64,000 bases of DNA, from NCBI RefSeq assembly GCF_033110285.1, contig NZ_CP136995.1:496001-560000 (forward strand), read 5' to 3'. Under the pieces are notes generated by a model, which was given only the letters and a program-made list of their open reading frames with translations, ran no database searches and was not told where the DNA came from. This document shows, in pieces, positions 16,327-38,876 of this stretch. The DNA is from Ottowia sp. SB7-C50 (lineage in GTDB: Bacteria; Pseudomonadota; Gammaproteobacteria; Burkholderiales; Burkholderiaceae_C). Position numbers and translations under genes: made by a program. Position 1 is the stretch's first letter. Every line of letters starts with the position of its first letter.

Positions 16327-16812
16327 TCAGGAATCGGCTGCAGGCATGCCATCGGGCGGATGCAGCGCGATGATCCGTTGCAGGGCCAGTTTCAATGCGG
16401 CGGACTGCTCTGATCCGAATGGCTGTAGCACTTTGGCCTCGTGCTCTCGCGCCAGGGCGATCAACTGGGCGACCAGCCTCGAGCCTTGGTCGGTGATGCG
16501 TACCAGCGTGACGCGGCGGTCGTTCGCGTCGTCGATGCGCACGACTTCGCCGCGCTCCACCAGGCGATGAATGATGCGCGTGACAGTGGGCTGCTTGGTG
16601 ACGGAGACGCGGGCCAGTTCGCCTGTCGACAGCGCGCGGCCGCCTGCCAGCGATGCCAGGACGCGCCACTCCGTGACGGTGAAGCCATGCGCCAGCACGA
16701 TGCGATGGAATTCACCCGAAATCAGCTGGCTCGCCTGCGCCAGAAGGGCGGGAAGGTAATCGTCCACGAAGGCGGGAGTCCGTTCGCAGGGGGCTGGCGT
16801 GACAGGGGGCAT
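16327..16812 (-). CDS. MarR-family transcriptional regulator of the divergent aromatic operon
   Basis: 161-residue winged-helix regulator. ATG 16812 is taken rather than the TTG one codon upstream. The DNA-binding core reads VTEWRVLASLAGGRALSTGE, then SVTKQPTVTRIIHRLVERGE, and the wing is RIDDANDRRVTLVRITDQG. It is divergent from the large catabolic operon starting at 16950, and two identical-core palindromes lie in the 137-base gap. MarR proteins of this kind usually repress aromatic degradation genes and release on binding the substrate or its CoA ester. MarR regulators control known auxin-degradation loci in Variovorax, which fits the gene content here. The ligand is inferred, not shown. 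Confidence 0.9.
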   Translation of the reverse strand: MPPVTPAPCERTPAFVDDYLPALLAQASQLISGEFHRIVLAHGFTVTEWRVLASLAGGRALSTGELARVSVTKQPTVTRIIHRLVERGEVVRIDDANDRRVTLVRITDQGSRLVAQLIALAREHEAKVLQPFGSEQSAALKLALQRIIALHPPDGMPAADS

Positions 16813-16866
16813 CAACTGAAACGAGAGGGTCGCGTGCCTTCGGGAAAGTCCCTACCCGCCGCGTAT

Positions 16867-16882
16867 ATGCATTTAGATGCAT
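16867..16882. promoter_or_regulatory. MarR-type operator O1
   Basis: ATGCAT-TTAG-ATGCAT, a perfect 6-4-6 palindrome with core CATTTAGATG. It overlaps the position of a candidate -35 (about 16878-16883) for the 16950 operon. Confidence 0.7.
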
Positions 16883-16903
16883 CAAGAATACAGTGCGATT
16901 TAT

Positions 16904-16919
16904 ATTCATTTGGATGAAT
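16904..16919. promoter_or_regulatory. MarR-type operator O2
   Basis: ATTCAT-TTGG-ATGAAT, a perfect 6-4-6 palindrome with core CATTTGGATG, centred 37 bp from O1. It overlaps a candidate -10 (TATATT, 16901-16906) and the predicted start near 16913, so binding would block transcription. Confidence 0.7.
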
Positions 16920-16949: not shown

Positions 16950-19112
16950 ATGGCTGAGCGGTCTTTCGTTGAAGAGGTCAAGAAGCTGCGCCTGGGCGAA
17001 GGCGAAGTCTTCCGGGGCGAAGGCATCCTGGCCGTGACCAAGGCCTTGCTGGAATCCGGCGTGGCCTACGTCTGCGGCTACCAGGGCGCGCCCATTTCGC
17101 ACCTGATGGACGTGCTGGCCGACGCGCAGGACATCCTGACCGAACATGGCATCCGCTTCGAGAACAGCGCCAGCGAAGCCACCGCCGCCGCCACGCTGGC
17201 CGCCTCGGTCAACTACCCGCTGCGCGGCGCGGCCACCTTCAAGAGCACCGTGGGTACTAACGTGGCGTCCGACGCGCTGGCCAACCTGGCGTCGGGCGGG
17301 GTGACAGGCGGCGCGCTCATCATCGTGGGTGAGGACTATGGTGAAGGCTCGTCCATCATGCAGGAGCGCAGCCACGCCTTTGCCATGAAGTCGCAGATCT
17401 GGCTGCTCGACCCCCGGCCCAACCTGCCGTCGATCGTGAAGGCGGTGAAGGACGGCTTTGCCCTGTCGGAAGCCAGCCACACGCCGGTGATGCTGCAGTT
17501 ACGCATCCGCGCCTGCCACGTGCACGGGCAGTTCGTGGCCAGCGACAACCAGCGCTCCCCGTTCACGCTGCAAGAAGCGCTGGACCAGCCGCGCCGCGAC
17601 GTCAGCCGCATCGTGCTGCCGCCCGCCAGCTTTCAACACGAGCAGGAAAAGATCGCCGACCGTTGGCCCGCGGCGGTGCGCTTCATCGCCGAGCATCAGC
17701 TGAATGAATTTTTCTCTGAGCACGCCGACGACATCGGCATCATCGTGCAGGGCGGCAGCTACAACACGCTGCTGCGCGTGCTGGAGCGCCTGGGCCTGGC
17801 CGACATCTATGGCGAGAGCCAGGTACCGCTCTACGTCATGAACGTGGCCTATCCCGTGGTCGACGAGGAAGTGGTGCGCTTTTGTGAAGGCAAGCGCGCC
17901 GTGCTGATGGTCGAAGAAGGGCAGCCCAACTTCATCGAGCAGAACGTGGCCGCGATCCTGCGCCAGCAGGGTTCGACCACCGCGCTGCATGGCAAAGACG
18001 TATTGCCGAAGGCGGGCGAATACACGGCGGCGCAGGTCATGCGCGGCGTGCGGGCCTTTCTGGCACGCGTCGGCCGCAGCGCGCCTGTGGACTACCGGCT
18101 GCCCGAGCGGCAGATTCCGGTGCAGGCCGCATCCGCATTGCCCGCGGCCCCGGTGCATGCAAGGCCGCCTGGCTTTTGCACCGGCTGCCCCGAGCGCCCC
18201 ATCTTCACCGCCATGAAGCTGGTCGAGCGCGAACTGGGTGAACATCACGTCAGTGCCGACATCGGCTGTCACCTGTTCTCCATCCTGCCGCCGTTCAACC
18301 TGGGCAACACCACCATGGGCTACGGCCTGGGCGCGGCCGGCGCGGCGGCACTCACCGTGCCGGCCGGCAAGCGCGCCATCAGCGTCATGGGCGACGGCGG
18401 CTTCTGGCACAACGGGCTGACCAGCGGCATTGCCAATGCGGTGTTCAACCGCAGCGACAACCTGACCATCGTGGTCGACAACAGCTACACCTCGGCCACA
18501 GGCGGGCAGGACATCCTGTCGTCCGCCGCCGCGAACCCCACGCGCAGCACGGGCCACGCCATTGAGGCGGCAGTGCGCGGTGTCGGCGTGACCTGGGTGC
18601 GCACACTGCGCCGCACCTACGATCTGGGCGGCATGGTCAAGGCGCTGCGCGAGGCGCTGACCACGCCGCAGACCGGCCCCAAGGTGCTGATCGCGCAGAG
18701 CGAGTGCATGCTCAACAAGCAGCGCCGCGAAAAGCCGTTGAAGGCCAAGGCCGCCGCCGCGGGCGAGCGCGTGGTGCGCGAGCGCTTCGGTGTCGACGCT
18801 GATGTGTGCACCGGCGATCATTCCTGCATCCGCCTGTCGGGTTGCCCCTCGCTGTCGATCAAGCCCAACCCCGATCCGCTGCGCACCGACCCGGTCGCCA
18901 CCGTGCTCGATTCCTGCGTCGGCTGCGGCCTGTGCGGCGAGGTGGCGCACGCTGCGGTGCTGTGCCCGTCGTTCTACCAGACGCGCATCATCAGCAACCC
19001 CAGCCGCTGGGAGCGCTGGCGCGCCCGCCTCAGCGCGGCGGTGATTGCGCGCTTGCAGCGCCGCGCCGAACGACGGCGCGCGCGGCTGGCCTGGCCCGAG
19101 GTGGCGCCATGA
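16950..19112 (+). CDS. iorA: Indolepyruvate ferredoxin oxidoreductase alpha-like subunit (thiamine-diphosphate and 4Fe-4S)
   Basis: 720-residue protein of the IorA family, which oxidatively decarboxylates aryl-pyruvates to aryl-acetyl-CoA with ferredoxin as acceptor. The N-terminal pyrimidine-binding region contains GYQGAPISHLMDVL and FENSASEATAAATLAASVN. A thiamine-diphosphate region follows near residues 405-520 (CTGCPERPIF, SADIGCHLF, MGDGGFWHNGL, NSYTSATGGQD). The C-terminal ferredoxin domain has DHSCIRLSGCPSL and DSCVGCGLCGEVAHAAVLCP. First gene of the operon. No ribosome site is evident before ATG 16950. It overlaps the beta gene by ATGA. The role may be indole-3-pyruvate to indoleacetyl-CoA, but the substrate is inferred. 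Confidence 0.88.
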   Translation: MAERSFVEEVKKLRLGEGEVFRGEGILAVTKALLESGVAYVCGYQGAPISHLMDVLADAQDILTEHGIRFENSASEATAAATLAASVNYPLRGAATFKSTVGTNVASDALANLASGGVTGGALIIVGEDYGEGSSIMQERSHAFAMKSQIWLLDPRPNLPSIVKAVKDGFALSEASHTPVMLQLRIRACHVHGQFVASDNQRSPFTLQEALDQPRRDVSRIVLPPASFQHEQEKIADRWPAAVRFIAEHQLNEFFSEHADDIGIIVQGGSYNTLLRVLERLGLADIYGESQVPLYVMNVAYPVVDEEVVRFCEGKRAVLMVEEGQPNFIEQNVAAILRQQGSTTALHGKDVLPKAGEYTAAQVMRGVRAFLARVGRSAPVDYRLPERQIPVQAASALPAAPVHARPPGFCTGCPERPIFTAMKLVERELGEHHVSADIGCHLFSILPPFNLGNTTMGYGLGAAGAAALTVPAGKRAISVMGDGGFWHNGLTSGIANAVFNRSDNLTIVVDNSYTSATGGQDILSSAAANPTRSTGHAIEAAVRGVGVTWVRTLRRTYDLGGMVKALREALTTPQTGPKVLIAQSECMLNKQRREKPLKAKAAAAGERVVRERFGVDADVCTGDHSCIRLSGCPSLSIKPNPDPLRTDPVATVLDSCVGCGLCGEVAHAAVLCPSFYQTRIISNPSRWERWRARLSAAVIARLQRRAERRRARLAWPEVAP

Positions 19113-20602
19113 GCGCGCAGCCGATCAAGATCGCCATCCTGGCCATGGGCGGCGAAGGTGGTGGCGTGCTGGCCGACTGGATTGTCGACCTGGCTGAGCA
19201 GAATGGCCATATTGCGCAGACGACCTCGGTGCCCGGCGTGGCGCAGCGCACGGGCGCGACCATCTACTACCTGGAGCTGTACCCGCGCGCCGCCGCCGAC
19301 GCGGACGGGCGCGCGCCGGTGCTGGCCATGATGCCCTTGCCGGGCGACGTGGATGTGGTGCTGGCGTCCGAGGCCATGGAGGCTGCGCGCGCGGTCGAGC
19401 GCGGCCTGGTGACGCCCGAGCGCACCACACTGATTGCTTCCACCCACCGTGTCTACGCCATTGGCGAGAAGATGGCCATGGGAGACGCGCGCGTGGACAG
19501 CGCGGCGCTAATCGAGCAGAGCCGCCGCGCGGCCCGACGGCTGGTGGTGTTCGACATGGCGCGCACTGCAGAACAGGCGGGCAGCGTGATCAGCGCCGTG
19601 CTGTTCGGCGCGCTGGCCGGTGCGCAGGCGTTGCCGTTCGAGCCGCAGGCGTTCGAAGCGACTATCGAACGCGGCGATGTCGCGGTTGCTGCAAGTTTGA
19701 GAGCGTTCCGCGCAGGTCTGGCAAGCGCCAACGGCCAGAATGATTCGATAACAGAGCCTGCGCGCGCCAGCGGCCCGCGCACGGAGTCATCGCCCGGGCA
19801 AACCGATCCGGGCGTGGCGGCGCTGGTCGCACGCGTGCAGCAATTTCCCGCCGATGCCCGCTCACTCGTCACCGAGGGCGTGCGCAGGCTGGTCGATTAC
19901 CAGGACGTGGCATATGCCGCGCTCTATCTGGATCGCCTGCAGTCACTGGCATTCGTCCCGTCGGTTCAGGTCGAGGCCGCGCGTCATCTGGCGTTGTGGA
20001 TGTCCTACGAAGATACCATTCGCGTCGCCGATCTCAAGACCCGCTCCGCGCGGCTGGCGCGCGTGCATGATGAGTCGCGGCGCACGGCCGGGCAACTGGT
20101 GCAGGTGCAGGAATTCCTCAAGCCCGGCATGCAGGAAATCTGCGACACCTTGCCGCCGTCGCTGGCGCGCTGGGTCGAGGGGAGCGGGGCGCTGCGTCGC
20201 TTGATCGAGCGCGTCACCCAGGATGGCAGTGTCGTGCGGACCAGCTCGCTGACGGGTTTTCTGCTGCTCTACGGGCTGGCCGGCTTGAGGCGCTGGCGGC
20301 GCGGCACGCGTCGCTTTCAGCTGGAAAACCAGCGCATCGAGCAGTGGTTGGCACAGGCTGTGAACGCGGCGCGCATCGATGCGCCGCTGGCCATCGAAAT
20401 CCTGCGCTGCCAGCGGCTGCTGAAAGGTTATGGCGGCACGCATGAACGCGGCTGGCACAATTTCAACGCCGTATTGAGCGCTGCGCTCGAACAGCCCACC
20501 GCGGCGGCGCACACGCTGCGAAACTTGCGCGACGCTGCCCTGGCCGACGAAGGGGGCGTAGCGCTTGGCGCGGCGCTTTCGGGCCTGAAACCCGCTTTAT
20601 GA
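19109..20602 (+). CDS. iorB: Indolepyruvate ferredoxin oxidoreductase beta-like subunit, long form
   Basis: 497-residue partner of the alpha subunit. ATG 19109 overlaps the alpha stop codon. The pyruvate-ferredoxin-oxidoreductase gamma-type domain covers about residues 1-200 (ILAMGGEGGGVLADWIVDLA, TSVPGVAQRTGATIYY). The remaining C-terminal part (about 260-495) is an extra domain of the DUF6537 kind with VTEGVRRLVDYQDVAYAALYL and RLLKGYGGTHERGWHNF. A low-complexity stretch near residues 205-235 separates the two. The archaeal beta subunit is only about 200 residues, so this is the long proteobacterial version. Confidence 0.87.
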   Translation: MSAQPIKIAILAMGGEGGGVLADWIVDLAEQNGHIAQTTSVPGVAQRTGATIYYLELYPRAAADADGRAPVLAMMPLPGDVDVVLASEAMEAARAVERGLVTPERTTLIASTHRVYAIGEKMAMGDARVDSAALIEQSRRAARRLVVFDMARTAEQAGSVISAVLFGALAGAQALPFEPQAFEATIERGDVAVAASLRAFRAGLASANGQNDSITEPARASGPRTESSPGQTDPGVAALVARVQQFPADARSLVTEGVRRLVDYQDVAYAALYLDRLQSLAFVPSVQVEAARHLALWMSYEDTIRVADLKTRSARLARVHDESRRTAGQLVQVQEFLKPGMQEICDTLPPSLARWVEGSGALRRLIERVTQDGSVVRTSSLTGFLLLYGLAGLRRWRRGTRRFQLENQRIEQWLAQAVNAARIDAPLAIEILRCQRLLKGYGGTHERGWHNFNAVLSAALEQPTAAAHTLRNLRDAALADEGGVALGAALSGLKPAL

Positions 20603-21582: not shown

Positions 21583-21593
21583 GGGAGCGACCC

Positions 21594-22913: not shown

Positions 22914-23413
22914 GCACGCTGATGTTGGATTCGACCCTGGTCATCGAGCGCGAACTGGTGCAGTTTGTTTACCGCGAAGCGAGCCTGCTCGATCAGGCGC
23001 GCTACACCGAATGGCTTGACCTGTTTGCCGACGACGGCAGGTACTGGATGCCACTGTCTCACGGCCAGACGGACGTCAAGCTGCACACCTCGCTCATGTT
23101 GGAAGACAAGCTGCTGCTGGGCATCCGCATTGAACGTCTGGCGGGCGCACGCACCTATTCGCAGCAGCCGCCCAGCCGCTGCCACCATTTGCTGCAGCAA
23201 CCCGAAGTGTTGAGCCGCGACGATGCCGCGGGCCGCTACCAGTTGCGCACGTCGTTCCACTACGTCGAGACGCGCAAGGACGACCAGTTTCTGCTCGCCG
23301 GCTGGGCCACGCACGATCTGGTGCGCGTGGAAGGGGCTCTGCGCATCGCGCTCAAGCGCGTTGACCTGATCAACTGCGACGCGGCATTTGGCAACATCTG
23401 CCTGTTTCCATGA
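22910..23413 (+). CDS. Aromatic-ring-hydroxylating dioxygenase small (beta) subunit
   Basis: 167-residue NTF2/SnoaL-fold structural subunit of the Rieske oxygenase. Family features are the N-terminal VYREASLLDQARYTEWLDLF, DDGRYWMP near residues 43-50, HTSLMLEDKLLLGIRIERL and the C-terminal RVDLINCDAAFGNICLF. It has no cofactor residues, as expected. It overlaps the alpha gene by ATGA, implying coupled synthesis of equal amounts. Confidence 0.93.
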   Translation: MSTLMLDSTLVIERELVQFVYREASLLDQARYTEWLDLFADDGRYWMPLSHGQTDVKLHTSLMLEDKLLLGIRIERLAGARTYSQQPPSRCHHLLQQPEVLSRDDAAGRYQLRTSFHYVETRKDDQFLLAGWATHDLVRVEGALRIALKRVDLINCDAAFGNICLFP

Positions 23414-23423
23414 GGCGGTGCCG

Positions 23424-25034: not shown

Positions 25035-25040
25035 GGAATC

Positions 25041-26219
25041 ATGGCCCATCCCATCCTGCGTCGCGGCTATGAAGGCGTGGCCGTGGCCGTGCCGATCACG
25101 GTGCCGTACCGGCGCTACGCGACCGAGGGTGCACACTGGTTTCTGGGCCAGGCGGTGAAGGCCTTGGTGTCGACCAGCGGCATCGACAAGGCGGACATCG
25201 ATGGCCTGGCGGTCAGCAGCTTTTCGCTGGCGCCCGACACCGCGGTTGGCGTCACGCAGCACTTGGGCATGAGCCCGCGCTGGCTGGACCACCTGCCGAC
25301 TGGCGGCGCGTCGGGCGTGATGGCGTTGCGCCGTGCGGCGCGTGCCGTGCAGGCGGGCGATGCCAACGTGGTGGCTTGCGTCGCTGCGGACACTAACCAC
25401 GTGGATTCGTTCAGACAGACGCTGGGGGGCTTCAGCCAGTTCGCGCGCGACGCCACGTACCCGTACGGATCGGGCGGCCCCAACTCGGTGTTCGCCATGA
25501 TCACCGCACATTACATGCGCACCTTTGGCGCTACGCGCGAGGACTTCGGCCGCATCGCGGTCAGCCAGCGCGCCAACGCATTGCGCAACCCCAACGCGCT
25601 GTTCAAGAAGCCGCTGACGCTGGACGAATACATGGCGGCCAAGGCCATCTCGGAGCCCCTGCACCTGTTCGACTGCGTGATGCCATGTGCCGGGGCAGAT
25701 GCCTTCCTGGTGATGAGCGAAGCGCGCGCGCGTGACCTCGGCCTGCCTTACGCGCAGGTGCGCGGCGCCATCGAGCGGCACAACGCCTATGCCGACGATC
25801 CCATCATGCTGCGCGGTGGCTGGCGCGTGGATCGGGACGAGCTTTACGCCATGGCCGGGATTGGGCCGGACGCCATCGACTTCATCCAGACCTATGACGA
25901 CTATCCGGTGGTGGTCATGATGCACTTCGAGGATCTTGGCTTCTGCGAAAAGGGCGAGGGGCCAGCCTTCGTGCGGCAGAAGACGCTCACCTGGGACGGC
26001 GCCTTCCCCAACAACACCAGCGGCGGCCAGCTGTCGGTGGGGCAGGCGGGTGCCGCAGGGGGCTTTCTCGGCATGGTCGAGGCGCTGCGCCAACTGACGG
26101 GCACAGCCGGCGAGCGCAGCGTGCCGGATGCGATGACCGGATTGGTGTGCGGCTTCGGCATGGTGACCTATGACCGTTGCCTGTGCACCGGCGCCGTCAT
26201 TCTGGGAGCCGCCGGATGA
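25041..26219 (+). CDS. Thiolase-like protein (SCP-x/non-specific lipid-transfer type) lacking canonical catalytic residues
   Basis: 392-residue thiolase-fold protein of the type that partners DUF35 proteins. The usual nucleophile motif CxSG is replaced by TGGASG at residues 87-92, with Gly89 where Cys is expected. The C-terminal GHPxGATG motif is GQAGAAGG at 334-341, with Gln335 for His. The dimer and substrate features seem kept (NNTSGGQLSVG, TYDDYPVVVMMHFEDLG). It may therefore act as an aldolase-like or retro-Claisen lyase with other residues, as steroid side-chain thiolase-like aldolases do with DUF35 partners. It overlaps the DUF35 fusion by ATGA, which supports a complex. Confidence 0.87.
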   Translation: MAHPILRRGYEGVAVAVPITVPYRRYATEGAHWFLGQAVKALVSTSGIDKADIDGLAVSSFSLAPDTAVGVTQHLGMSPRWLDHLPTGGASGVMALRRAARAVQAGDANVVACVAADTNHVDSFRQTLGGFSQFARDATYPYGSGGPNSVFAMITAHYMRTFGATREDFGRIAVSQRANALRNPNALFKKPLTLDEYMAAKAISEPLHLFDCVMPCAGADAFLVMSEARARDLGLPYAQVRGAIERHNAYADDPIMLRGGWRVDRDELYAMAGIGPDAIDFIQTYDDYPVVVMMHFEDLGFCEKGEGPAFVRQKTLTWDGAFPNNTSGGQLSVGQAGAAGGFLGMVEALRQLTGTAGERSVPDAMTGLVCGFGMVTYDRCLCTGAVILGAAG

Positions 26220-27469: not shown

Positions 27470-27472
27470 CCC

Positions 27473-28276: not shown

Positions 28277-28287
28277 GAACACGTCCC

Positions 28288-29265: not shown

Positions 29266-29278
29266 ACAGGAGTCGTTG

Positions 29279-30013: not shown

Positions 30014-30051
30014 ATCGACGTTTTTCCAACCCCTGCATCAGGAGACACATC

Positions 30052-31206
30052 ATGAAACTCACGCATGTCGTTCGCTCGGTCGCCTGCCTCGCGCTGGCGC
30101 TCGGCGCCGGATCGGCGGCGCTGGCCCAGGTCAAGGTGGGGGTGATCACCTCCGCCACGGGGCCGACAGCGCTGGTCGGTATTCCGCAGAAGAACACCGT
30201 GCCGCTGCTGCCCAAGCAAATCGGTAATCTGAGCGTTGAGTACATCGCGCTCGACGACGCCAGCGATCCGACGAACTCAGTGACCGCCGTGCGCAAGCTG
30301 ATCGCGGAAAACAACGTCGACGCCATCATCGGCCCGTCGGGTTCGCCCAACGCCATGGGTGTCATCCAGTTCGTGGCCGACGCGGGCGTGCCGCTGCTGG
30401 CGCCTGTGGGCACGGCAGCCGTTGTGGTGCCGATGGACGAGAAGAAGAAGTGGGTGTTCAAGACCACGCAGAACGACGACATCATTGCCGATGCCTTGCT
30501 GGAGCACATGGCCAGGACGGGCATCAAGACGTTGGGCTTCATCGGCACGTCAGACCCCTACGGCGAGAACTGGTTCAAGGTCGTGAGCGGCATGGCCGAC
30601 AAGCTGGGAATCAAGGTCGTCGCCAACGAGCGCTTCCAGCGGTCGGACACGTCCGTGGTCGGGCAGGGTCTGAAGATCGTCGGCGCACGTCCTGACGCCG
30701 TGCTGGTGGCCGTGCCTGGCGGCCCGTCGGTGCTGCCGCAGGTCACGCTGTTCGACCAGGGCTACAAGGGCAAGATCTACCAGACACACGGCGCCGCGCT
30801 GCCTGAGTTCCTCAAGCTGGGGGGCAAGAAGGTGGACGGAACGATCCTTGCCGCCAGCCTGATGCTGGTGCTGCCCGAAATCGCCGACAGCAATCCCTCC
30901 AAGAAGGTCGCCGCCGACTACATCGCCGCGTATGAGAAGCTGAATGGATCCAAGCCCGCGACCTTCGGTGCCAACGTGTTCGACGCCGGGTTGTTGCTGC
31001 AGCAGGCCATCCCGCTGGCCGAGAAGCGCGGCAAGCCGGGCACCAAGGAGTTTCGCGCCGCGCTGCGCGACGCACTGGAGCAGACCCGTGAAATGGTGGG
31101 CACGCAGGGCGTCTACAACATGACGCCGCAGGACCACAGCGGCTTTGACAAGCGCGGCCGCGAGCTCATCACGGTGCGCGGCGGCAACTTTGTCTTGCTG
31201 AAGTAA
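30052..31206 (+). CDS. Liv-type ABC transporter binding protein, orphan, last gene of the operon
   Basis: 384-residue periplasmic binding protein with ATG 30052, GGAGA upstream, and a signal peptide ending at ALAQV. Type 1 periplasmic-binding fold: VKVGVITSATGPTALVG, DDASDPTNSVTAVRKLI, IIGPSGSPNAMGV, FIGTSDPYGENWF. No permease or ATPase genes accompany it; the nearest Liv-type complex is the 6-12 kb operon in this window, which it may share. A strong hairpin follows the stop codon. Likely captures the aromatic acid degraded by the operon. Confidence 0.92.
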   Translation: MKLTHVVRSVACLALALGAGSAALAQVKVGVITSATGPTALVGIPQKNTVPLLPKQIGNLSVEYIALDDASDPTNSVTAVRKLIAENNVDAIIGPSGSPNAMGVIQFVADAGVPLLAPVGTAAVVVPMDEKKKWVFKTTQNDDIIADALLEHMARTGIKTLGFIGTSDPYGENWFKVVSGMADKLGIKVVANERFQRSDTSVVGQGLKIVGARPDAVLVAVPGGPSVLPQVTLFDQGYKGKIYQTHGAALPEFLKLGGKKVDGTILAASLMLVLPEIADSNPSKKVAADYIAAYEKLNGSKPATFGANVFDAGLLLQQAIPLAEKRGKPGTKEFRAALRDALEQTREMVGTQGVYNMTPQDHSGFDKRGRELITVRGGNFVLLK

Positions 31207-31347: not shown

Positions 31348-33789
31348 ATGAACATCGTCTGCATCGGCGGCGGCCCCGCTGGCCTGTACTTCGCACTCCT
31401 GATGAAGCAGCACAACCCGGCCCACGACATCACCGTGGTCGAGCGCAACAAGCCCTACGACACCTTCGGCTGGGGCGTGGTGTTTTCCGACGCCACCATG
31501 GACAACATGCGCCAGTGGGACAAGGCCACGGCCGATGAGATCGAGCAGGCTTTAAACCACTGGGACGACATCGAGCTCGATTTCAAGGGCGAGGTGATCC
31601 GCTCCGGCGGCCACGGCTTTGTCGGCATCGGGCGCAAGAAGCTGCTCAACATCCTGCAGGCGCGCTGCGAGCAACTGGGCGTCAAGCTGGTGTTCGAGGC
31701 CGACGTCAACTCCGACGCCGAATTCCCCGACGCTGACCTGATAATCGCCAGCGACGGCATCAACTCGAAAGTTCGCACGCTGCACCAGGACGTGTTCCAG
31801 CCCGAGTTGGTGGTGCGCCCCAACCGCTACATCTGGCTGGGCACGAACCGCCTGTACGACGCCTTCACCTTCGTGTTTGAAAAGACCGAGCACGGCTGGT
31901 TTCAGGCCCACATCTACAAGTTTGACGAGCACACCACCACCTTCATCGTTGAATGCCCTGAGCACGTGTGGCTGGCGCATGGGCTCGACAAGGCGACGCA
32001 GGACGAATCGATTGCCTTCTGCGAAAAGCTGTTCGCCGGCACGCTGCAAGGCCACAAGCTGATGACCAACGCGCGCCACCTGCGCGGCTCGGCCTGGCTC
32101 AATTTCCAGCGCGTGAAGTGCGAACAATGGTGGCTGAAGAACGCGCACGGCGCCCACGTGGTGCTGATGGGCGACGCGGTGCACACGGCGCACTTTGCCA
32201 TCGGATCGGGCACCAAGCTGGCGATCGAGGATGCGATTGAGCTCACGCGGCTGTTCATCGAGATGGGCGACGCGCCCGAGCGCATCGGCGAGGTGCTCAC
32301 GCGCTATCAAGCCACGCGCAGCGTCGAGGCGCTGAAGTTGCAAAACGCCGCCTGGAACGCCATGGAATGGTTCGAGGTCTGCGGCGACCGCTACTGCGAC
32401 ACGCTGGAGCCGCCGCAGTTCATGTACAGCATGCTCACGCGCAGCCAGCGCATCAGTCACGAGAACCTGCGCCTGCGCGACGCGGCCTGGCTCGAAGGCT
32501 ACGAGGCGTGGTTCGCGCGCACACGCACGGCACCGCCTGGTTTTGAGTCAAATCAGGCTCCGGTGCTTGCCAGTCAAGCGCAAATAGCTCCTGTTTCAGG
32601 ATCAACCGTCCCGCCCATGCTGACGCCTTTCACGGTGCGCGGCCTGACGCTGAAGAACCGCATCGTCGTCTCGCCCATGGCGCAATACAGCGCGCAAGAC
32701 GGTGTGGTCGGCGACTGGCACCTGATGCACCTGGGCGCGCGCGCTGTCGGCGGCGCGGCGCTGGTGATGGTCGAGATGACCTCGCCCACGCACCGCCACG
32801 GCTTTGATGGCCGCATCACCCCCGGCTGTCCGGCGCTGGAGAGCGACGCGCAGCAGGCCGCCTTCCAACGCATCGTCGACTTCGTGCATGCGAACAGCGA
32901 CGCCGCCATCGGCCTCCAGCTGGGCCACAGCGGGCCGAAGGGTTCGACGCAACTCGGCTGGGAGGCGATGGACGAGCCGCTGCCGCAAGGCAACTGGCCG
33001 CTGGTGGCCGCCAGCGACGTGCGCTATGGCGAGCAGAACCAGACGCCCCGATCGCTGACCCGCGCCGACATGGATGCGCTGCGCGATGCCTTCGTCGCCG
33101 CCACGCGCCGCGCCCACGCAGCGGGCTTCGACTGGCTGGAGCTGCACTGCGCCCACGGCTACCTGCTGTCGTCCTTCATCAGCCCGTTGACCAACCTGCG
33201 CACGGACGAGTACGGCGGTTCTTTGGAAAACCGCTGCCGCTACCCGCTGGAAGTGTTCGCCGCCATGCGCGCCGCCTGGCCGCAAGACAAGCCGATGAGC
33301 GTGCGCATCTCGGCACACGACTGGGCGCCCGGCGGCACCACGCCCGCCGACGCGCTGGAAGTCGCCAAGCTGTTCAAGGCCGCGGGCTGCGACGTGATCG
33401 ACGTGTCGTCCGGCCAGACCACACGCGCCGCCAAGCCGACCTACGGCCGCATGTACCAGACGCCGTTTGCCGACCGCATCCGCAACGAGGCAGGCATTGC
33501 CACCATGGCCGTGGGTGCGATCTCGGAGGCCGACCACGCCAACAGCATCATCGCCGCCGGCCGCGCCGACCTGTGCGCCGTGGGCCGCCCGCACCTGGCC
33601 GACCCGGCCTGGACGCTGCACGAAGCCGCCAAGCTGCAAAACCACGCCATCGGCTGGCCGCGCCAATACCTGAGCGGACGCGACCAGCTGTACCGCGAGC
33701 TGGCAAGGCAAAAAGCGGCGCTGGCGCCCGCCAGTACAGCGCAAACAGCTCCTCAATCCATAGCAAACGTGGCCGCGACGACGGTGTGA
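31348..33789 (+). CDS. abmA: Anthraniloyl (2-aminobenzoyl)-CoA monooxygenase/reductase, fused FAD hydroxylase and old yellow enzyme
   Basis: 813-residue two-domain flavoenzyme. Residues about 1-395 form a salicylyl-CoA 5-hydroxylase-like FAD monooxygenase ([17 protein letters not shown], then [20 protein letters not shown]). Residues about 425-790 form an old-yellow-enzyme FMN domain ([51 protein letters not shown]). This fusion is characteristic of the Azoarcus enzyme that hydroxylates and then reduces 2-aminobenzoyl-CoA. The inter-domain linker (about 398-420) and the last 25 residues are encoded by family A repeats. Neighbours (hydratase, dehydrogenase, 2-aminobenzoate ligase) support anthranilate rather than salicylate. 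No clear SD precedes ATG 31348. Confidence 0.92.
32541..32606. repeat. Family A repeat inside abmA (inter-domain linker)
   Basis: On the minus strand: TTGATCCTGAAACAGGAGC, TTTGCGCTTGACTGGCAAGC, GGAGCC and an A/T-rich end. In the gene's frame it encodes the Ala/Pro/Ser/Gln linker between the two enzyme domains. Confidence 0.65.
33711..33769. repeat. Family A repeat inside abmA (C-terminus)
   Basis: On the minus strand: TTTGCTATGGATTGAGGAGC, TTTGCGCTGTACTGGC, GCCAGCGCC. It encodes the Ala/Thr/Gln-rich C-terminal tail of the monooxygenase/reductase. Confidence 0.6.
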
Positions 33790-33793
33790 GGCC

Positions 33794-34258
33794 ATGGACC
33801 TGGAAGCCCGCGCCCACGCCGAACATCCTGACGAACTGCGCCTGTGGCTGCGTCTGCTGACCTGCACGCAGCTGATTGAAAAGCAGGTACGCACCGACTT
33901 GCGCGAGCAGTTCGACACCACCTTGCCGCGCTTTGATTTGATGGCGCAGCTGGAGCGCGTGCCCGAGGGCATGCGCATGAACGAGCTGTCGCGCCGCATG
34001 ATGGTGACCGGCGGCAACATCACCGGCATCACCGACCAGCTGGAGGCCGAAGGCCTGGTCGAGCGTGCCGAAGTGGCAGGCGACCGACGCGCCTACCGCG
34101 TGCGGCTGACGTCCAAGGGCCGCCAGCAATTCAACGCCATGGCCCACGCGCACGATGCGTGGATCATGGGCGCCTTTGCGGCCTTGAACCCGCGCGACAT
34201 TCAAACCCTGCACACCTTGCTGGGCAAGGTGAAAGCCCATTTTCTGGAGACAGCATGA
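33794..34258 (+). CDS. MarR-family regulator of the 2-aminobenzoate operon
   Basis: 154-residue winged-helix regulator with core [40 protein letters not shown] and wing [19 protein letters not shown]. It lies inside the operon, four bases after abmA and overlapping the hydratase by ATGA, so it is made with the enzymes and likely gives feedback control. It differs from the MarR at 16327, which suggests separate control of the two operons. The effector is presumably 2-aminobenzoyl-CoA or a related ester; not shown. Confidence 0.92.
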
Positions 34259-35251: not shown

Positions 35252-36448
35252 ATGACGCCTTCCATCGCCCACCTCTCGCTGCCCTTCTTCGACGCCGCGC
35301 ACCGCGACATTGGCCAGCGCCTGCCCGCGTGGGCCGCCGCGCAAGACGTGGACGAGCGCGATGACCGCGCCGCCTGCCGCGACTGGGTGCGGCGACTGGG
35401 TAGCGACGGCTGGCTGAAATACTGCGTCGCGGCCGAACACGGCGGCGCATTGCCGCAGCTCGATTCGCGCGCGCTGGTGGTGCTGCGCGAGACGCTGGCC
35501 TTTTATTCGCCGTTGGCCGACTTTGCCTTTGCCATGCAGGGCCTGGGCAGCGGCGCGATTTCGCTCGGCGGCACGCCGGCGCAGCAGGCGGCGTATCTGC
35601 CGGCGGTGGCGCGCGGCGACAAGATCGCGGCGTTTGCGCTCAGTGAGCCGCAGGCCGGGTCGGACGTAGCAGCTATGCAAACCATAGCTGCTTGCGCAGA
35701 GGGGGCGGGCGCTGGAGGCCAACGCGACTCTAAAGCTGCGCATTGGCGCCTGAACGGCACCAAGACCTGGATCAGCAACGGCGGCCTGGCCGACTTCTAC
35801 TGCGTGTTCGCCAAGACCGAGCCGCAAGCCGGCAGCCGCGGCGTCACCGCCTTCATCGTCGACAAAGGCGCGCCTGGGCTGGACGACAGCGCCCACATCC
35901 ACGTGATGGCGCCGCACCCGCTGGCGACGTTGAAGCTGACCGACTGCGCGGTCGCGGGCGACGCGCCGCTGGGTGACGTCAACGGTGGCTTCAAGCTGGC
36001 GATGCAGACGCTCGACATCTTCCGCGCAAGCGTGGCCGGCGCCGCGCTGGGCATGGCGCGCCGCGCGCTGGCTGAAGCGATCGATTACGCGCGCCAGCGC
36101 CAGATGTTCGGCCAGACGCTCGCCGACTTTCAGCTGACGCAGGCCAAGTTGGGCGAGATGGCCGCGCTGATCGACGCCGGCGCGCTGCTGACCTACCGCG
36201 CGGCGTGGATGCGCGACACACAGCACGGCTCGATGAAAGAGCGCAGCGTGGCCGCGGCGATGGCCAAGATGACCGCCACCGAAAACGCCCAGCGCGTGAT
36301 CGACATGGCGCTGCAAATGCACGGCGGGCGCGGCGTCGAAGTGGGCGCCAAGGTCGAATCGCTGTACCGCGACATCCGCAGCCTGCGCATCTACGAAGGC
36401 GCGACCGAGGTGCAGCAGTTGATCATCGGCAAGGCGGTGTTGCAGTGA
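35252..36448 (+). CDS. Acyl-CoA dehydrogenase in the 2-aminobenzoate operon
   Basis: 398-residue FAD-dependent dehydrogenase. Motifs: FALSEPQAGSDVAAM near residues 127-141, KTWISNGGLADFYCVFAK, the arginine-containing FGQTLADFQLTQAKLGEMA and the C-terminal DMALQMHGGRGVEV with RSLRIYEGATEVQ. A family A repeat inserts about 20 residues (near 139-161) just after the SEPQAGSD flavin-binding motif, in a surface loop that is short in relatives. Frame and all core motifs are kept, so it should be active. It likely oxidises a cyclic or ring-opened acyl-CoA of the pathway. Confidence 0.92.
   Translation: MTPSIAHLSLPFFDAAHRDIGQRLPAWAAAQDVDERDDRAACRDWVRRLGSDGWLKYCVAAEHGGALPQLDSRALVVLRETLAFYSPLADFAFAMQGLGSGAISLGGTPAQQAAYLPAVARGDKIAAFALSEPQAGSDVAAMQTIAACAEGAGAGGQRDSKAAHWRLNGTKTWISNGGLADFYCVFAKTEPQAGSRGVTAFIVDKGAPGLDDSAHIHVMAPHPLATLKLTDCAVAGDAPLGDVNGGFKLAMQTLDIFRASVAGAALGMARRALAEAIDYARQRQMFGQTLADFQLTQAKLGEMAALIDAGALLTYRAAWMRDTQHGSMKERSVAAAMAKMTATENAQRVIDMALQMHGGRGVEVGAKVESLYRDIRSLRIYEGATEVQQLIIGKAVLQ
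35668..35735. repeat. Family A repeat inside the acyl-CoA dehydrogenase gene
   Basis: Forward orientation: GCAGCTATGCAAACCATAGC, TGCTTGCGCAGAG, GGCGCTGGAGGCCAA and an A-rich tail. It keeps the reading frame and lengthens a loop after the flavin motif. Confidence 0.75.
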
Positions 36449-36470
36449 CTTCAGTAGGGCGTGCTGACTT

Positions 36471-36645
36471 TCTCTCTCTCCCGCGTGCGGGAGCGGGTTG
36501 GGGTGAGGGTGCCTTTCTCCTTTCCCTCCTGGGGGACGGCAGGGTTGGGGGCCAACCGCGCCCGCTGATGACGCTACGTCCCCTTACCCTCGCCCCCGGA
36601 TCGAGTCCGGGGCAGGCTCTCTCCCCAGCGGGGCGAGAGCGCAAA
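36471..36645. repeat. Intergenic REP-like inverted repeats (CTCTCCC/GGTGAGGG type)
   Basis: The 226-base gap before the ligase contains CTCTCCCGCGTGCGGGAG, then GGTTGGGGTGAGGGTGCC and, in opposite sense, CCTTACCCTCGCCCCCGG with GAGTCCGGGGCAGGCTCTC. This resembles REP-type intergenic repeats of many proteobacteria. No gene or clear promoter is seen in this gap. Confidence 0.6.
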
Positions 36646-36674
36646 TCCCCGGTCACGTTCGCATGGAGCTGCCC

Positions 36675-38876
36675 ATGACCACACCCAGCGCCCAGACCGA
36701 CCGCTTTGTGCACGACCGCCTGCCGCCGCGCGACCAGTGGCCGGCGTTTCGCTACGACCTGCCCGAGCTGCAGTTCCCCGATCAGGTCAATCTGGTGCAG
36801 CGCCTGCTGGACGACGCAGTGGACCTGAAGGGCTGGGGCGAGCGGCCGCTGCTGCGCTCACCGCAAGTGACGTTCACGTACGCCGAAACGCGCGAGCGCG
36901 TGAATCGCATCGCCAACTATCTTGTCCACGATCTGAAGCTGCAGCCCGGCAACCGCGTGCTGCTGCGCGGCGGCAACTCCATCGGCATGGCGCTGTCGTG
37001 GCTGGCGGTGGTCAAGGCCGGGTTGGTGGCGGTGGCCACGATGCCGTTGCTGCGCGCGCTGGAACTGGGCAAGGTGATCGGCAAGGCACAACCTGTGGCT
37101 GCCATCTGCGACGCGCGCTTGCTGCCCGAGCTGGAGCAGGCGCAGGCCGCGCAGCCGGGCGTGCTGCGCCACATCGTGCGCTTTGGCGCCGCGGATGACC
37201 CGCAGGATCTGGGCGCGCTTGCGGCGCGCCAGCCGGCCAGCTTCACCGCCTGCGCCACCGCGGCCGACGACATCGCGCTGCTTGCCTTTACCAGCGGCAC
37301 CACCGGCGCGCCCAAGGCCGTGGTGCACACGCATCGCGACGTGCTGGCCGCGTGCGAATGCTGGCCGCGTCACGTGCTGCGCGCCACACCGGATGACGTG
37401 GTCACCGGATCGCCGCCGCTGGCCTTCACCTTCGGGCTGGGCGGGTTGCTGCTGTTTCCGATGTGGGCGGGCGCCAGCATCTATTACCCCGACGTGCCCT
37501 ACAACCCCGAAACCATGGTGCGCCAGATGCGCGAGCACGGCGTCACCACCTGCTACACCGCGCCCACGTTCTATCGCCAGATGGCGCCACACGCCCGGGC
37601 CATCGGCATCCCCACATTGCGCACCTGCGTCAGCGCGGGCGAGGCCTTGCCGGACGCCACGCGCCAGCTGTGGAAAGACGCCACCGGCATAGAGATGCTG
37701 GACGGCATCGGCGCCACCGAGATGTTCCACATCTTCATCTCGTCGGACGGCGCCGATGTGCGGCGGGGCGCTATCGGAAAAGTCGTGCCCGGCTACCAGG
37801 CCAAGGTGGTGGACGACGAGGGCCGCGAAGTGCCGCGCGGCACGGTCGGCAAGCTGGCGGTGATCGGCCCCACGGGTTGCCGCTACATGGACGACGCGCG
37901 CCAGACGCGCTATGTGCCGGATGGTTGGAACCGCCCCGGCGACGCCTTTGTGCAGGACGCCGACGGCTACTTTCACTACCAGGCGCGCGACGACGACATG
38001 ATCATCACCGCCGGCTACAACGTCGGCGGCCCCGAGGTCGAGGACTGCCTGCTGACGCACCCGGCCGTGGCCGAATGCGGCGTGATCGGCAAGCCCGACG
38101 ACGAGCGCGGCATGGTGATCAAGGCCGTGGTCGTGCTGAAAGCCGGCCACGCGGGCGACGCCGCCATGGTCAAGGCGCTGCAGGACCACGTGAAGAGCAG
38201 CATCGCGCCCTACAAGTACCCGCGCGAGATTGAATTTGTCACCGCGCTGCCGCGCACCGAAACCGGCAAGCTGCAGCGCTTCAAGTTGAGGGAGAAGTCT
38301 CCCCCCCTGAGGCGCTTCGCGCCTTCCCCCCGGCAGGGGGGACAGCGCTGGTGGCCGGCACAGGTCCGGCCACGGCGTTCCGGCATGGCCTGCTCCGCGG
38401 CCCTTTGTGCAGTGGATGGGTACGGTGTTTGTTTCACGTGGTGCGTATGCGCGCAGAAATTCTGGAGTATGGATATGAGGAAGGTTCTTCACCCCGCCGA
38501 CTGGGCGCCCGCCAAGGGCTACGCCAATGGCATCGCCGCGCGCGGCACCCAAATCTATGTGGGCGGCCAGATCGGCTGGAACGCGCAGCAGCAGTTTGAA
38601 AGCGACGACTTCATCGCGCAGACGCGGCAGGCGCTCATCAACATCGTCGACGTGCTGAAAGTGGCCGGGGCCGGCCCCGAGCACATGGTGCGCATGACCT
38701 GGTACGTGGTCAGCCGCGACGAATACAACAGCCGCCTGAAGGAACTGGGCGGCGTGTACCGCGAAGTGATCGGCAAGAACTTTCCCGCCATGAGCTGCGT
38801 GCAGGTCGCGGGGCTGATGGAGGCGCGCGCCAAGGTGGAGATCGAGGTGACGGCGGTGCTGCCCGATGCGCCTTGA
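36675..38876 (+). CDS. abmG: 2-Aminobenzoate-CoA ligase reading in frame into a RidA-family domain
   Basis: As given, one 733-residue frame. Residues 1-541 are an AMP-forming ligase of the 2-aminobenzoate-CoA ligase family (RLPPRDQWPAFRYDLPELQ, LLAFTSGTTGAPKAVVHTH, DGIGATEMFHIF, TETGKLQRFKLRE). Residues about 542-598 are encoded by repeat C2 and have no domain. Residues 599-733 are a RidA/YjgF domain. With six rather than seven C at 38301-38307 the ligase would stop after LREKSPP and RidA would be separate. ATG 36675 with GGAG is preferred to ATG 36663. The ligase starts anthranilate breakdown by forming 2-aminobenzoyl-CoA. Confidence 0.85.
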   Translation: MTTPSAQTDRFVHDRLPPRDQWPAFRYDLPELQFPDQVNLVQRLLDDAVDLKGWGERPLLRSPQVTFTYAETRERVNRIANYLVHDLKLQPGNRVLLRGGNSIGMALSWLAVVKAGLVAVATMPLLRALELGKVIGKAQPVAAICDARLLPELEQAQAAQPGVLRHIVRFGAADDPQDLGALAARQPASFTACATAADDIALLAFTSGTTGAPKAVVHTHRDVLAACECWPRHVLRATPDDVVTGSPPLAFTFGLGGLLLFPMWAGASIYYPDVPYNPETMVRQMREHGVTTCYTAPTFYRQMAPHARAIGIPTLRTCVSAGEALPDATRQLWKDATGIEMLDGIGATEMFHIFISSDGADVRRGAIGKVVPGYQAKVVDDEGREVPRGTVGKLAVIGPTGCRYMDDARQTRYVPDGWNRPGDAFVQDADGYFHYQARDDDMIITAGYNVGGPEVEDCLLTHPAVAECGVIGKPDDERGMVIKAVVVLKAGHAGDAAMVKALQDHVKSSIAPYKYPREIEFVTALPRTETGKLQRFKLREKSPPLRRFAPSPRQGGQRWWPAQVRPRRSGMACSAALCAVDGYGVCFTWCVCAQKFWSMDMRKVLHPADWAPAKGYANGIAARGTQIYVGGQIGWNAQQQFESDDFIAQTRQALINIVDVLKVAGAGPEHMVRMTWYVVSRDEYNSRLKELGGVYREVIGKNFPAMSCVQVAGLMEARAKVEIEVTAVLPDAP
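38297..38406. repeat. GC-rich repeat (family C) at the ligase-RidA junction
   Basis: Starts GTCTCCCCCCCTGAGGCGC, contains the hairpin GAGGCGCTTCGCGCC and ends CATGGCCTGCTCCGCGGCCC, matching the intergenic repeat at 9194-9316 in layout. Here it has no in-frame stop codon. Confidence 0.75.
38469..38876 (+). CDS. RidA family protein (alternative separate start within the fused frame)
   Basis: If the junction upstream carries a stop, this is a free 135-residue RidA/YjgF-YER057c-UK114 protein. ATG 38469 is preceded by CTGGAGT, a usable ribosome site. RidA features: GTQIYVGGQIGWN near residues 22-34, QTRQALINIVDVLKVAGAG, MVRMTWYVVSRDEY and the C-terminal ARAKVEIEVTAVL. RidA proteins hydrolyse enamine/imine intermediates; the 2-aminobenzoyl-CoA route makes an enamine-type 2-amino-5-oxo-cyclohexene product, so a deaminating role is plausible. 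Confidence 0.6.
   Translation: MDMRKVLHPADWAPAKGYANGIAARGTQIYVGGQIGWNAQQQFESDDFIAQTRQALINIVDVLKVAGAGPEHMVRMTWYVVSRDEYNSRLKELGGVYREVIGKNFPAMSCVQVAGLMEARAKVEIEVTAVLPDAP

What the first reader, a model, noticed from the sequence alone, without database searches (positions are those of the whole stretch)
16327..38876. Adjacent operons look like a complete route from an indolic acid (probably auxin) to 2-aminobenzoyl-CoA
Seen: MarR; a 12-gene packed operon with IorAB-like proteins, a complete Rieske oxygenase with reductase, CoA ligase, thiolase-like protein, DUF35 fusion, isatin-hydrolase-type cyclase (HTGTHFDAPIH) and intact SDR; immediately followed by an operon with the aminobenzoyl-CoA monooxygenase/reductase fusion, 2-aminobenzoate ligase, hydratase, dehydrogenase and RidA. 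Known: isatin hydrolase acts in indoleacetate breakdown to 2-aminobenzoate; MarR-controlled Rieske-type auxin loci exist in Variovorax; the fused monooxygenase/reductase defines the Azoarcus 2-aminobenzoyl-CoA route. Inference: the first operon makes 2-aminobenzoate and the second consumes it. Coupling the two in one locus is the most system-like feature of the window.
Basis: partly seen in the sequence, partly recalled or inferred. Interest (0 to 1): 0.85.

Follow-up and report, generated by a model that had tools for sequence, protein, structure and literature searches.

The report
Auxin-to-aminobenzoyl-CoA catabolic gene cluster
A soil-type bacterium keeps the genes that dismantle the plant hormone auxin next to the genes that probably finish off the leftover ring, and related genomes suggest that two unexplained auxin genes are the link between them.

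Summary
A divergent MarR gene and 12 tightly packed genes (16950-31206) form an iad-type auxin locus; 141 bp later comes an abm operon (aminobenzoyl-CoA monooxygenase/reductase, MarR, hydratase, dehydrogenase, ligase-RidA). Both parts are known kinds. I found the pairing in no paper of the held library, yet it recurs: 49 of 50 iad genomes searched match the abm fusion (two only in pieces), 14 within 25 kb of iadD, in several arrangements. New readings: (1) iadAB, iad marker genes without an assigned step, lie near isatin hydrolase and/or the abm fusion in 7 of 11 family genomes that have IadA but no iadD. Best reading: IadAB turns isatinate into 2-aminobenzoyl-CoA, coupling the operons directly. 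(2) IadG, a 'thiolase', lacks the thiolase cysteine in 73 of 73 sequences and its partner IadH has a degenerate SDR half; retro-aldol release of isatin fits better. (3) The second MarR groups with regulators in the position of the orphan IadR2, so an aminobenzoyl-CoA-type ligand is worth testing. No activity was shown here. The abm fusion is common in this family without iad, and published work shows anthranilate forming without iadAB.

The parts
16327..16815 (-). iadR: MarR repressor, predicted auxin sensor
   Evidence: PDB best 7kki/7kfo (MarR_73 by its sequence numbering, S28 and R46) 172 bits; the equivalent Ser and Arg are conserved in 43 of 43 aligned rows, window included
16867..16919 (.). 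two similar palindromes (16867-16882, 16904-16919) in the iadR-iadA gap, candidate IadR operators
   Evidence: the only two places in the 64 kb window, shuffle mean 0.27; not general: 3 of 34 homologous gaps, about 0.1 expected
16950..19112 (+). iadA: IOR-alpha-like TPP/Fe-S subunit; predicted isatinate oxidoreductase
   Evidence: TIGR03336 285 bits, below cut-off 650.9; TPP GDG and 9 Cys conserved in 50 of 50 aligned rows
19109..20602 (+). iadB: IOR-beta-like subunit with DUF6537
   Evidence: NF006179 676 bits over cut-off 348; PF20169
20599..21582 (+). iadC: FAD/NAD/2Fe-2S reductase of the Rieske oxygenase
   Evidence: Pfam PF00970, PF00175, PF00111
21579..22913 (+). iadD: Rieske oxygenase alpha subunit
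   Evidence: PDB 9o71 625 bits and 7yls 621 bits
22910..23413 (+). iadE: Rieske oxygenase beta subunit
   Evidence: PF00866
23424..25034 (+). iadF: acyl-CoA ligase; a homologue only 32-37% identical fills the slot in most other iad loci seen
   Evidence: NF004808 872 bits over cut-off 722
25041..26219 (+). iadG: thiolase-fold protein without the thiolase cysteine, predicted retro-aldolase
   Evidence: PDB 9myr (CtSal aldolase) 175 bits, 6ok1 (a 'lipid-transfer protein', recalled to be Ltp2) 156 bits; YDDY and Cys-less GGASG in 73 of 73 aligned rows
26216..27469 (+). iadH: DUF35 (zf-ChsH2 + OB) fused to a degenerate SDR; predicted partner of IadG
   Evidence: Y-x3-K intact in 2 of 61 aligned rows
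27473..28276 (+). iadI: isatin hydrolase
   Evidence: PDB 5nmp 377 bits, 5nna 359 bits; HTGTHFDAPIH, GLQC, WYW
28288..29265 (+). TctC-type periplasmic receptor
   Evidence: PF03401 201 bits
29279..30013 (+). iadJ: SDR with intact catalytic motif
   Evidence: Y-x3-K in 68 of 68 aligned rows
30052..31206 (+). periplasmic binding protein (Peripla_BP_6); not the IadK2 orthologue
   Evidence: PDB 3sg0 361 bits versus IadK2 7ylt 272 bits; residues at the IadK2 F168 and W172 positions read as T and Y
31348..33789 (+). abm fusion: aminobenzoyl-CoA monooxygenase/reductase, FAD monooxygenase + OYE domains
   Evidence: NF006101 1322 bits; a leader with a promoter-like sequence is shared with an iad-less congener
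33794..34258 (+). MarR2: regulator in the clade that holds the second MarRs of iad loci (IadR2/MarR_50 position)
   Evidence: tree; PDB 3boq 74 bits
34255..35181 (+). enoyl-CoA hydratase
   Evidence: NF006107 488 bits over cut-off 330
35252..36448 (+). acyl-CoA dehydrogenase
   Evidence: PF00441, PF02770, PF02771
36663..38876 (+). 2-aminobenzoate-CoA-ligase-like domain and RidA in one 737-aa ORF; RidA has its own ATG at 38469
   Evidence: separate genes in L132, L133, L134

Best explanation
An iad-type auxin (IAA) locus joined to an abm operon makes a continuous route from IAA to 2-aminobenzoyl-CoA and into beta-oxidation-like steps. IadR releases the operon on IAA (inferred from homology). 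IadCDE oxygenates IAA and IadJ dehydrogenates to dioxindole-3-acetate (reported for Variovorax in a preprint). IadF makes its CoA ester; IadG with the DUF35 of IadH splits it by retro-aldol cleavage into isatin and acetyl-CoA (inferred here). IadI hydrolyses isatin to isatinate (family activity known). IadAB, a TPP/Fe-S 2-oxoacid oxidoreductase, converts isatinate plus CoA to 2-aminobenzoyl-CoA plus CO2 (inferred here). The abm fusion dearomatises that ester, and hydratase, dehydrogenase and RidA continue. The ligase picks up free anthranilate, from leakage or from tryptophan.
For: Same gene order as the studied iad locus and PDB matches. Abm fusion matched in 49 of 50 iad genomes (in G441 and G445 only pieces), 14 within 25 kb of iadD. 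In 250 family genomes: abm match in 18 of 19 iadD genomes versus 127 of 231 others (p 3e-4), and in 28 of 29 with IadA of about 66% identity or more versus 117 of 221 (p 1e-6), but in 27 of 42 with only the more distant (mostly 52-55%) IOR homologue versus 118 of 208 (p 0.23). Eleven genomes have such an IadA but no iadD at the threshold; all 11 have an abm match, in 3 it is 2-4 kb from iadA, and in 6 an isatin hydrolase gene lies within 5 kb. Four of 26 genomes tested have no ligase over 40% identity yet have iadA and the abm fusion within 2-9 kb of each other. IadG lacks the thiolase Cys in 73 of 73; the IadH SDR motif is broken in 59 of 61. In the preprint C8H7NO3, the isatinate formula, piles up strongly only in strains overexpressing iadC-K2, which carry no iadAB.
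Against: The preprint restores full anthranilate with iadC-K2 alone, so iadAB is not needed for anthranilate, and wild-type Variovorax yields anthranilate. It places C8H7NO2 (dioxindole formula) before IadI, finds iadH needed, and takes IadG for a ketothiolase and IadH for a dehydrogenase. The abm fusion matches in 145 of 250 family genomes, and a congener without iadD has the abm operon, so adjacency here may be recent. In 35 of 49 iad genomes the two are not within 25 kb (3 of these share a contig at 70-77 kb; many assemblies are drafts). In 5 of the 11 IadA-without-iadD cases no isatin hydrolase gene was seen nearby (two are short contigs), and in 4 neither isatin hydrolase nor abm; L193 has a distant Rieske set (28-35%) beside iadA. 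Alcaligenes-type genomes do have a ligase orthologue elsewhere. IadG's YDDY has Asp where CtSal has its catalytic Cys.
Confidence: 0.64

Rival explanations
1. Operon 1 makes free anthranilate as published, and the abm operon independently activates it with its ligase; the two are neighbours by convenience, and IadAB does something peripheral.
For: Anthranilate is the measured product in Variovorax and forms without iadAB. The abm operon has its own promoter-like leader shared with an iad-less congener and its own MarR and ligase. It could serve tryptophan: the genome has tryptophan dioxygenase next to a cyclase and an ORF that I recognise by eye as kynureninase-like, and the one anthranilate 1,2-dioxygenase model tried gives no hit over cut-off.
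Against: It leaves iadAB without a role although an IadA of about 66% or more is found in 18 of 19 iadD genomes of the family sample and iadAB also sits with isatin hydrolase and/or the abm fusion in 7 of 11 genomes without iadD. Some IadAB-linked abm clusters lack the ligase between dehydrogenase and RidA (L136, L138, L141, L143), though L135/L136 and L138 have other ligase-like ORFs close by.
Confidence: 0.24
2. IadAB is a true indolepyruvate oxidoreductase that makes indoleacetyl-CoA or IAA from tryptophan, so the operon starts from indolepyruvate.
For: IOR family matches.
Against: IadA is far below the indolepyruvate equivalog cut-off (285 versus 650.9 bits); IadAB-isatin hydrolase modules occur in genomes without iadD; a 53% homologue elsewhere in this genome could fill the general IOR role.
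Confidence: 0.05
3. The fusion acts on salicylyl-CoA, as its NCBIfam name says, and adjacency to iad is coincidental.
For: The NCBIfam model is named bifunctional salicylyl-CoA 5-hydroxylase/oxidoreductase, and NCBI records repeat the name.
Against: JGI names relatives anthraniloyl-CoA monooxygenase; a review gives the flavoenzyme of Azoarcus evansii as 2-aminobenzoyl-CoA monooxygenase/reductase; the association with IadA is unexplained by salicylate.
Confidence: 0.06

Closest known systems
iad locus of Variovorax paradoxus CL14 (PMC9613470, PMC10374108, PMC12633357)
   Same: iadR divergent, then iadA-J in the same order with a binding-protein gene after; MarR with the same ligand residues; Rieske subunits; an IadI of the cyclase family
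   Different: Here the abm operon follows directly, the ligase is from the other IadF-like lineage, the binding protein lacks IadK2 auxin residues, and a TctC gene is inserted. In the Variovorax-type genome G516 abm lies on another contig.
2-aminobenzoyl-CoA (abm) pathway of Azoarcus evansii (review PMC4539516, passages read)
   Same: Monooxygenase/reductase flavoenzyme, aminobenzoate-CoA ligase, beta-oxidation enzymes
   Different: Here coupled to an auxin locus; ligase and RidA share one ORF after a repeat insertion
Sal/Shy bile acid aldolase (9MYR, PMC12329534, passages read) and Ltp2 aldolase (6ok1)
   Same: Thiolase fold without nucleophilic Cys, DUF35 partner, catalytic-base Tyr kept in IadG
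   Different: Second catalytic residue is Asp in IadG (YDDY), not Cys (YDCY) or His/Tyr; substrate differs
anaerobic iaa locus of Aromatoleum (described in PMC9613470, passages read)
   Same: IAA is degraded to 2-aminobenzoyl-CoA
   Different: Described there as highly divergent from iad, and anaerobic; not compared by me
Isatin hydrolase A (5nna, 5nmp; PMC6117287, passages read)
   Same: Metal motif, GLQC and WxW signature
   Different: Here embedded in the iad operon

Membership tests
iad-like auxin locus | iadA/iadB (IotA/IorB) marker genes | tested here: met
   markers named in PMC9613470
iad-like auxin locus | IadD-type Rieske oxygenase with beta subunit and reductase | tested here: met
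   625 bits to 9o71
iad-like auxin locus | MarR with MarR_73 Ser28/Arg46 equivalents | tested here: met
   43 of 43 rows
iad-like auxin locus | converts IAA to anthranilate | not testable with these tools
   needs culture and LC-MS
IadK2 auxin-binding protein | Phe168 and Trp172 equivalents | tested here: not met
   Thr and Tyr in the window protein
2-aminobenzoyl-CoA monooxygenase/reductase | FAD monooxygenase fused to OYE reductase, full length | tested here: met
   domains; NF006101 over cut-off
2-aminobenzoyl-CoA monooxygenase/reductase | acts on 2-aminobenzoyl-CoA | not testable with these tools
   needs enzyme assay
isatin hydrolase | HxG[T/A]HxDxPxH, GLQC, WxW | tested here: met
indolepyruvate ferredoxin oxidoreductase (equivalog) | TIGR03336 score over cut-off | tested here: not met
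   285 versus 650.9 bits
TPP/Fe-S 2-oxoacid oxidoreductase superfamily | TPP GDG motif and Fe-S cysteines (motifs recalled) | tested here: met
   50 of 50 rows
thiolase | nucleophilic Cys and GHP His | tested here: not met
   GGASG without Cys and GQAG in 73 of 73 rows
Sal/Ltp2-type aldolase | DUF35 partner and catalytic Tyr of the YDxx motif | tested here: met
   that IadH binds IadG is not shown
Sal/Ltp2-type aldolase | second residue: Cys of YDCY (Sal), or His of YDHF with a second Tyr (Ltp2) | tested here: not met
   YDDY in 73 of 73 rows
active SDR (IadH half) | catalytic Y-x3-K | tested here: not met
   FSASK in the window; intact in 2 of 61 rows

The most novel reading that the evidence does not exclude
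The iad pathway does not really end at anthranilate: IadAB is a new 2-oxoacid oxidoreductase, isatinate to 2-aminobenzoyl-CoA, fed by isatin that a thiolase-fold retro-aldolase (IadG with IadH DUF35) releases. Isatin hydrolase-IadAB-abm is a mobile lower module that also serves other isatin-forming pathways, and the orphan IadR2 regulators sense its CoA ester. In Alcaligenes-type loci the module ends differently: abm fusion, hotdog thioesterase and a gentisate-dioxygenase-like ring-cleavage enzyme, which would give genes for the gentisate route reported in 1983.
Probability: 0.43. Interest if true: 0.75.

Novelty: new variant of a known kind. Interest (0 to 1): 0.62.

Why it matters
Auxin-degrading root bacteria of the iad type are being engineered to help plants (PMC12633357), but the papers read draw the pathway only to anthranilate, give two marker genes no step, and find no ligand for the second regulator. 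The comparative pattern gives each of these a concrete, assayable prediction and says which lower pathway probably removes the product.

Tried and rejected
Ideas rejected. Ligase-RidA as an evolved fusion: relatives L132, L133 and L134 have separate genes, and the junction here holds a repeat with 35 copies in the genome at up to 2 mismatches (0 for the reversed control), so it looks like an insertion that joined the frames. The strict 'no ligase, so IadAB must supply CoA' argument for Alcaligenes: a ligase orthologue exists elsewhere in those genomes. A shared operator for both operons: the palindromes of the iadR-iadA gap do not occur upstream of abm and are rare in other loci, 3 of 34 gaps. 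The binding protein as IadK2: residues differ. Raw abm-iad co-occurrence at order level (8 of 12 versus 49 of 387) is confounded by family, so I used the within-family counts. Paper search was swamped by auxin papers and told nothing.

Limits of the counts. The IadA cut (about 66%) was set by me after seeing the list. The conservation rows include the window and were filtered by identity (40-55% floors, by gene) and for stops; a few are repeats of one genome (72 of 73 IadG rows are distinct). In one search, 80 MarR sequences were collected and 34 IadR rows were dropped before the tree. One search used one anthranilate dioxygenase model. One search used 26 genomes chosen by me.

Not done: no structure prediction or fold search; no plasmid or phage collection search; no experiment. 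50 of the 80 loci were searched as genomes (short contigs and many Achromobacter left out).
Full report
Where it is. The window lies at 496001-560000 of a single-contig genome of 3.61 Mb. A same-genus genome (G585) has the IadD coordinates and identity found for Ottowia sp. GY511 (G399), so the host is probably an Ottowia-like member of the Comamonadaceae (inference).

Operon 1 is an iad locus. The papers (passages of PMC9613470, PMC10374108 and PMC11630574, and the first two of nine parts plus passages of PMC12633357) describe an auxin locus with IadR, the iadA/iadB marker genes, IadC (reductase), IadDE (Rieske), IadF (acyl-CoA synthase), IadG, IadH, IadI, IadJ and IadK2. The window has the same kinds in that order, plus a TctC gene between iadI and iadJ. 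IadD matches 9o71 and 7yls with 625 and 621 bits; IadI matches the isatin hydrolases 5nmp and 5nna with 377 and 359 bits and carries the metal motif, GLQC and WxW that PMC6117287 (passages) gives as signature; 68 of 68 aligned IadI rows have GLQC. The MarR aligns with 7kki/7kfo (172 bits) and keeps Ser and Arg at the positions whose mutation weakened or eliminated auxin binding, in 43 of 43 aligned rows. The binding protein is not an IadK2 orthologue: it scores 361 bits to 3sg0 and 272 to IadK2, and Thr and Tyr stand where IadK2 has Phe168 and Trp172.

Operon 2 is an abm operon: the two-domain fusion (NF006101), MarR2, enoyl-CoA hydratase, acyl-CoA dehydrogenase, and ligase plus RidA. A congener without iadD or IadA at the thresholds used (G463) has the same operon at 83-93% identity with ligase and RidA as separate genes (L132), and a promoter-like sequence just before the fusion's ATG is shared, while what lies further upstream differs. 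So an abm operon can stand alone, and the iad part is joined to it here and in Ottowia GY511 (L133).

Is the pairing general? Of 50 genomes holding loci, 50 gave IadD and 49 matched the abm fusion at E 1e-130; in G441 and G445 only pieces were matched. On the same contig and within 25 kb of iadD: 14 (G399, G401, G404, G408, G410-G414, G418, G419, G429, G434, G438; distances); three more at 70-77 kb. Some of the 14 are close kin (G410, G411 and G414 are Alcaligenes). For a genome of 4-5 Mb a random gene would fall within 25 kb in about 1% (arithmetic). Within the family sample of 250 genomes abm matches occur in 145, so the control matters: 18 of 19 iadD genomes versus 127 of 231 others, Fisher p 3e-4; within 25 kb in 6 of the 18 (G000, G585, G491, G539, G612, G637). 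G543 has iadD without an abm match; in the 50-genome set G437 (locus L064, a metagenome-assembled genome) lacks the fusion but has hydratase, dehydrogenase and MarR2 homologues and a weaker ligase match beside iad.

What IadAB does. IadA is in the IOR superfamily (TPP GDG and nine cysteines in 50 of 50 rows) but scores far below the indolepyruvate equivalog cut-off. In the same 250 genomes I put 29 in a group with IadA of about 66% identity or more; four of the 29 rest on partial or split matches (G549, G634, G049, G204), and G464, with a 62% fragment and no abm match, was left in the other group. The abm fusion is matched in 28 of these 29 versus 117 of 221 others (p 1e-6). Genomes with only the more distant homologue (mostly 52-55%) show no such association: 27 of 42 versus 118 of 208 (p 0.23). 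Eleven of the 29 have no iadD at the threshold used; all 11 have an abm match (11 of 11 versus 134 of 239, p 0.002), and in G622, G632 and G204 it lies 2-4 kb from iadA. Fetched neighbourhoods show an isatin hydrolase gene within 5 kb of iadA in 6 of the 11 (L185, L186, L188, L190, L191, L192) and not in L187, L189, L193, L194, L197 (the last two are contigs of 10.3 and 4.4 kb); L187 has abm, so 7 of 11 have one or both nearby. L193 has a distant Rieske set (28-35%) beside iadA. In two iadD genomes where iadAB lies apart from iadCDE (L195 = G585, L196 = G615) iadI-iadA-iadB again stand together. Twelve of 12 IadI copies checked, including these eight modules, carry the isatin hydrolase signature. 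So iadAB tends to follow isatin hydrolase and the abm fusion rather than the auxin oxygenase. Isatinate is a 2-oxoacid (2-aminophenylglyoxylate), the kind of substrate this superfamily takes (recalled); oxidative decarboxylation with CoA gives 2-aminobenzoyl-CoA, the abm substrate. That step is inference.

Supporting and opposing published data. In the preprint, C8H7NO3 and C7H7NO accumulate strongly only in strains overexpressing iadC-K2, which lack iadAB; C8H7NO3 is the formula identified as isatinic acid in PMC8383072 (passages). The word search counted no iadA or iadB in that preprint. Against: complementation with iadC-K2 fully restores anthranilate, so iadAB is not needed for it, and anthranilate is the published product. 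Ligase: 22 of 26 genomes tested have a ligase of at least 50% identity to the window's, including all five Alcaligenes-type genomes; G632, G438 and G408 have none at E 1e-80 and G622 only a 40% one, and in these four iadA and the abm fusion lie within 2-9 kb. Between dehydrogenase and RidA the ligase is missing in L136, L138, L141 and L143; L135/L136 and L138 have other ligase-like ORFs nearby.

Side-chain cleavage. IadG's best PDB match is 9myr, the CtSal aldolase bound to a DUF35 domain. IadG lacks the thiolase Cys (GGASG, 73 of 73 rows), has Gln where 7yvy has the GHP His, and keeps the catalytic-base Tyr in a YDDY motif (73 of 73). PMC12329534 (passages) argues that Gly in place of the Cys excludes thiolysis in CtSal. 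IadH is a DUF35 fused to an SDR whose catalytic Y-x3-K is intact in 2 of 61 rows and is FSASK here; IadJ's is intact in 68 of 68. Dioxindole-3-acetyl-CoA is a beta-hydroxyacyl-CoA; retro-aldol cleavage gives isatin and acetyl-CoA without a redox step, and the C8H7NO2 seen in iadI mutants would be reduced isatin. This departs from the preprint's ketothiolase and dehydrogenase assignment and is inference; the preprint does find iadH needed for anthranilate, which a DUF35 partner would also explain. IadG is filed neither as a thiolase nor as Sal, since a defining residue of each is not met.

Second regulator. PMC9613470 found no ligand for MarR_50 (IadR2) and only gene 51 derepressed in its mutant. 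In my tree, MarR2 proteins of abm clusters and second MarRs of iad loci, including those at the end of Variovorax-type loci (L146, L147, taken as stand-ins for MarR_50 by position), form one group of 33 rows apart from 13 IadR rows (100/100), with abm-linked and unlinked rows interleaved. The two groups are joined by very long branches and three of the 33 rows are long, so only the grouping, not its depth, should be read. L145/L146 is called Variovorax-type because its binding protein matches IadK2 with 714 bits. That the ligand is a CoA ester is a guess worth testing.

A branch noticed in relatives. In L140, L011, L186 and L187 a double-cupin gene, an FAA hydrolase gene and a nitrilase-like gene follow the abm fusion; the cupin protein scores 317 bits (L140) and 314 (L186) on the gentisate dioxygenase model, below its cut-off of 442. 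A hotdog thioesterase gene precedes the fusion in L140, L011, L024 and L186; in L185 and L187 I found no clear one. PMC8383072 quotes a 1983 report of IAA to gentisate through isatin and anthranilate in Alcaligenes, and PMC6221969 (passages) says the gene for the gentisate route in indole degradation is not known.

Literature. Searches of the held library showed me no paper on iad-abm adjacency or on IadAB acting on isatinate; some lists were cut at 20 papers, I read only the papers named here and mostly passages, and subscription journals are mostly not held. Other supply of anthranilate: tryptophan dioxygenase, a cyclase and an ORF that I take by eye for kynureninase lie together at 2.176 Mb, and the TIGR03228 anthranilate dioxygenase model hits only IadD, below cut-off, so the abm operon may serve tryptophan too.

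Noticed in passing
window 38291-38471: About 180 extra bases with a GC-rich palindrome (38303-38330) lie between ligase and RidA; the repeat has 35 copies in the genome at up to 2 mismatches (control 0), and no stop separates the two, so ligase and RidA read as one ORF.
   Followed up: yes
L140, L011, L186, L187: Variant loci: abm fusion followed by a double-cupin gentisate-dioxygenase-like gene, FAA hydrolase and nitrilase-like gene; a hotdog thioesterase precedes the fusion in L140, L011, L024 and L186. Candidate genes for a gentisate-type route.
   Followed up: partly
window 23424-25034: The iadF slot holds a ligase only 32-37% identical to that of most iad loci seen; its closer relative (58-61%) sits as an extra ligase near the second MarR in Variovorax-type loci L146, L147 and L153: probably non-orthologous displacement.
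   Followed up: partly
L145/L146, L147, L153, L135: A second IadD/IadE-like pair (about 45-56% identity) lies downstream of iadJ in these loci; its substrate is unknown.
   Followed up: no
G000 C1:2175903-2178897 (L002, L198): Cyclase and, by eye, kynureninase-like ORFs beside tryptophan 2,3-dioxygenase: a possible tryptophan-to-anthranilate supply for the abm operon.
   Followed up: partly
window 38963-40668: A class II aldolase-like gene and another TctC receptor gene follow the abm operon.
   Followed up: no
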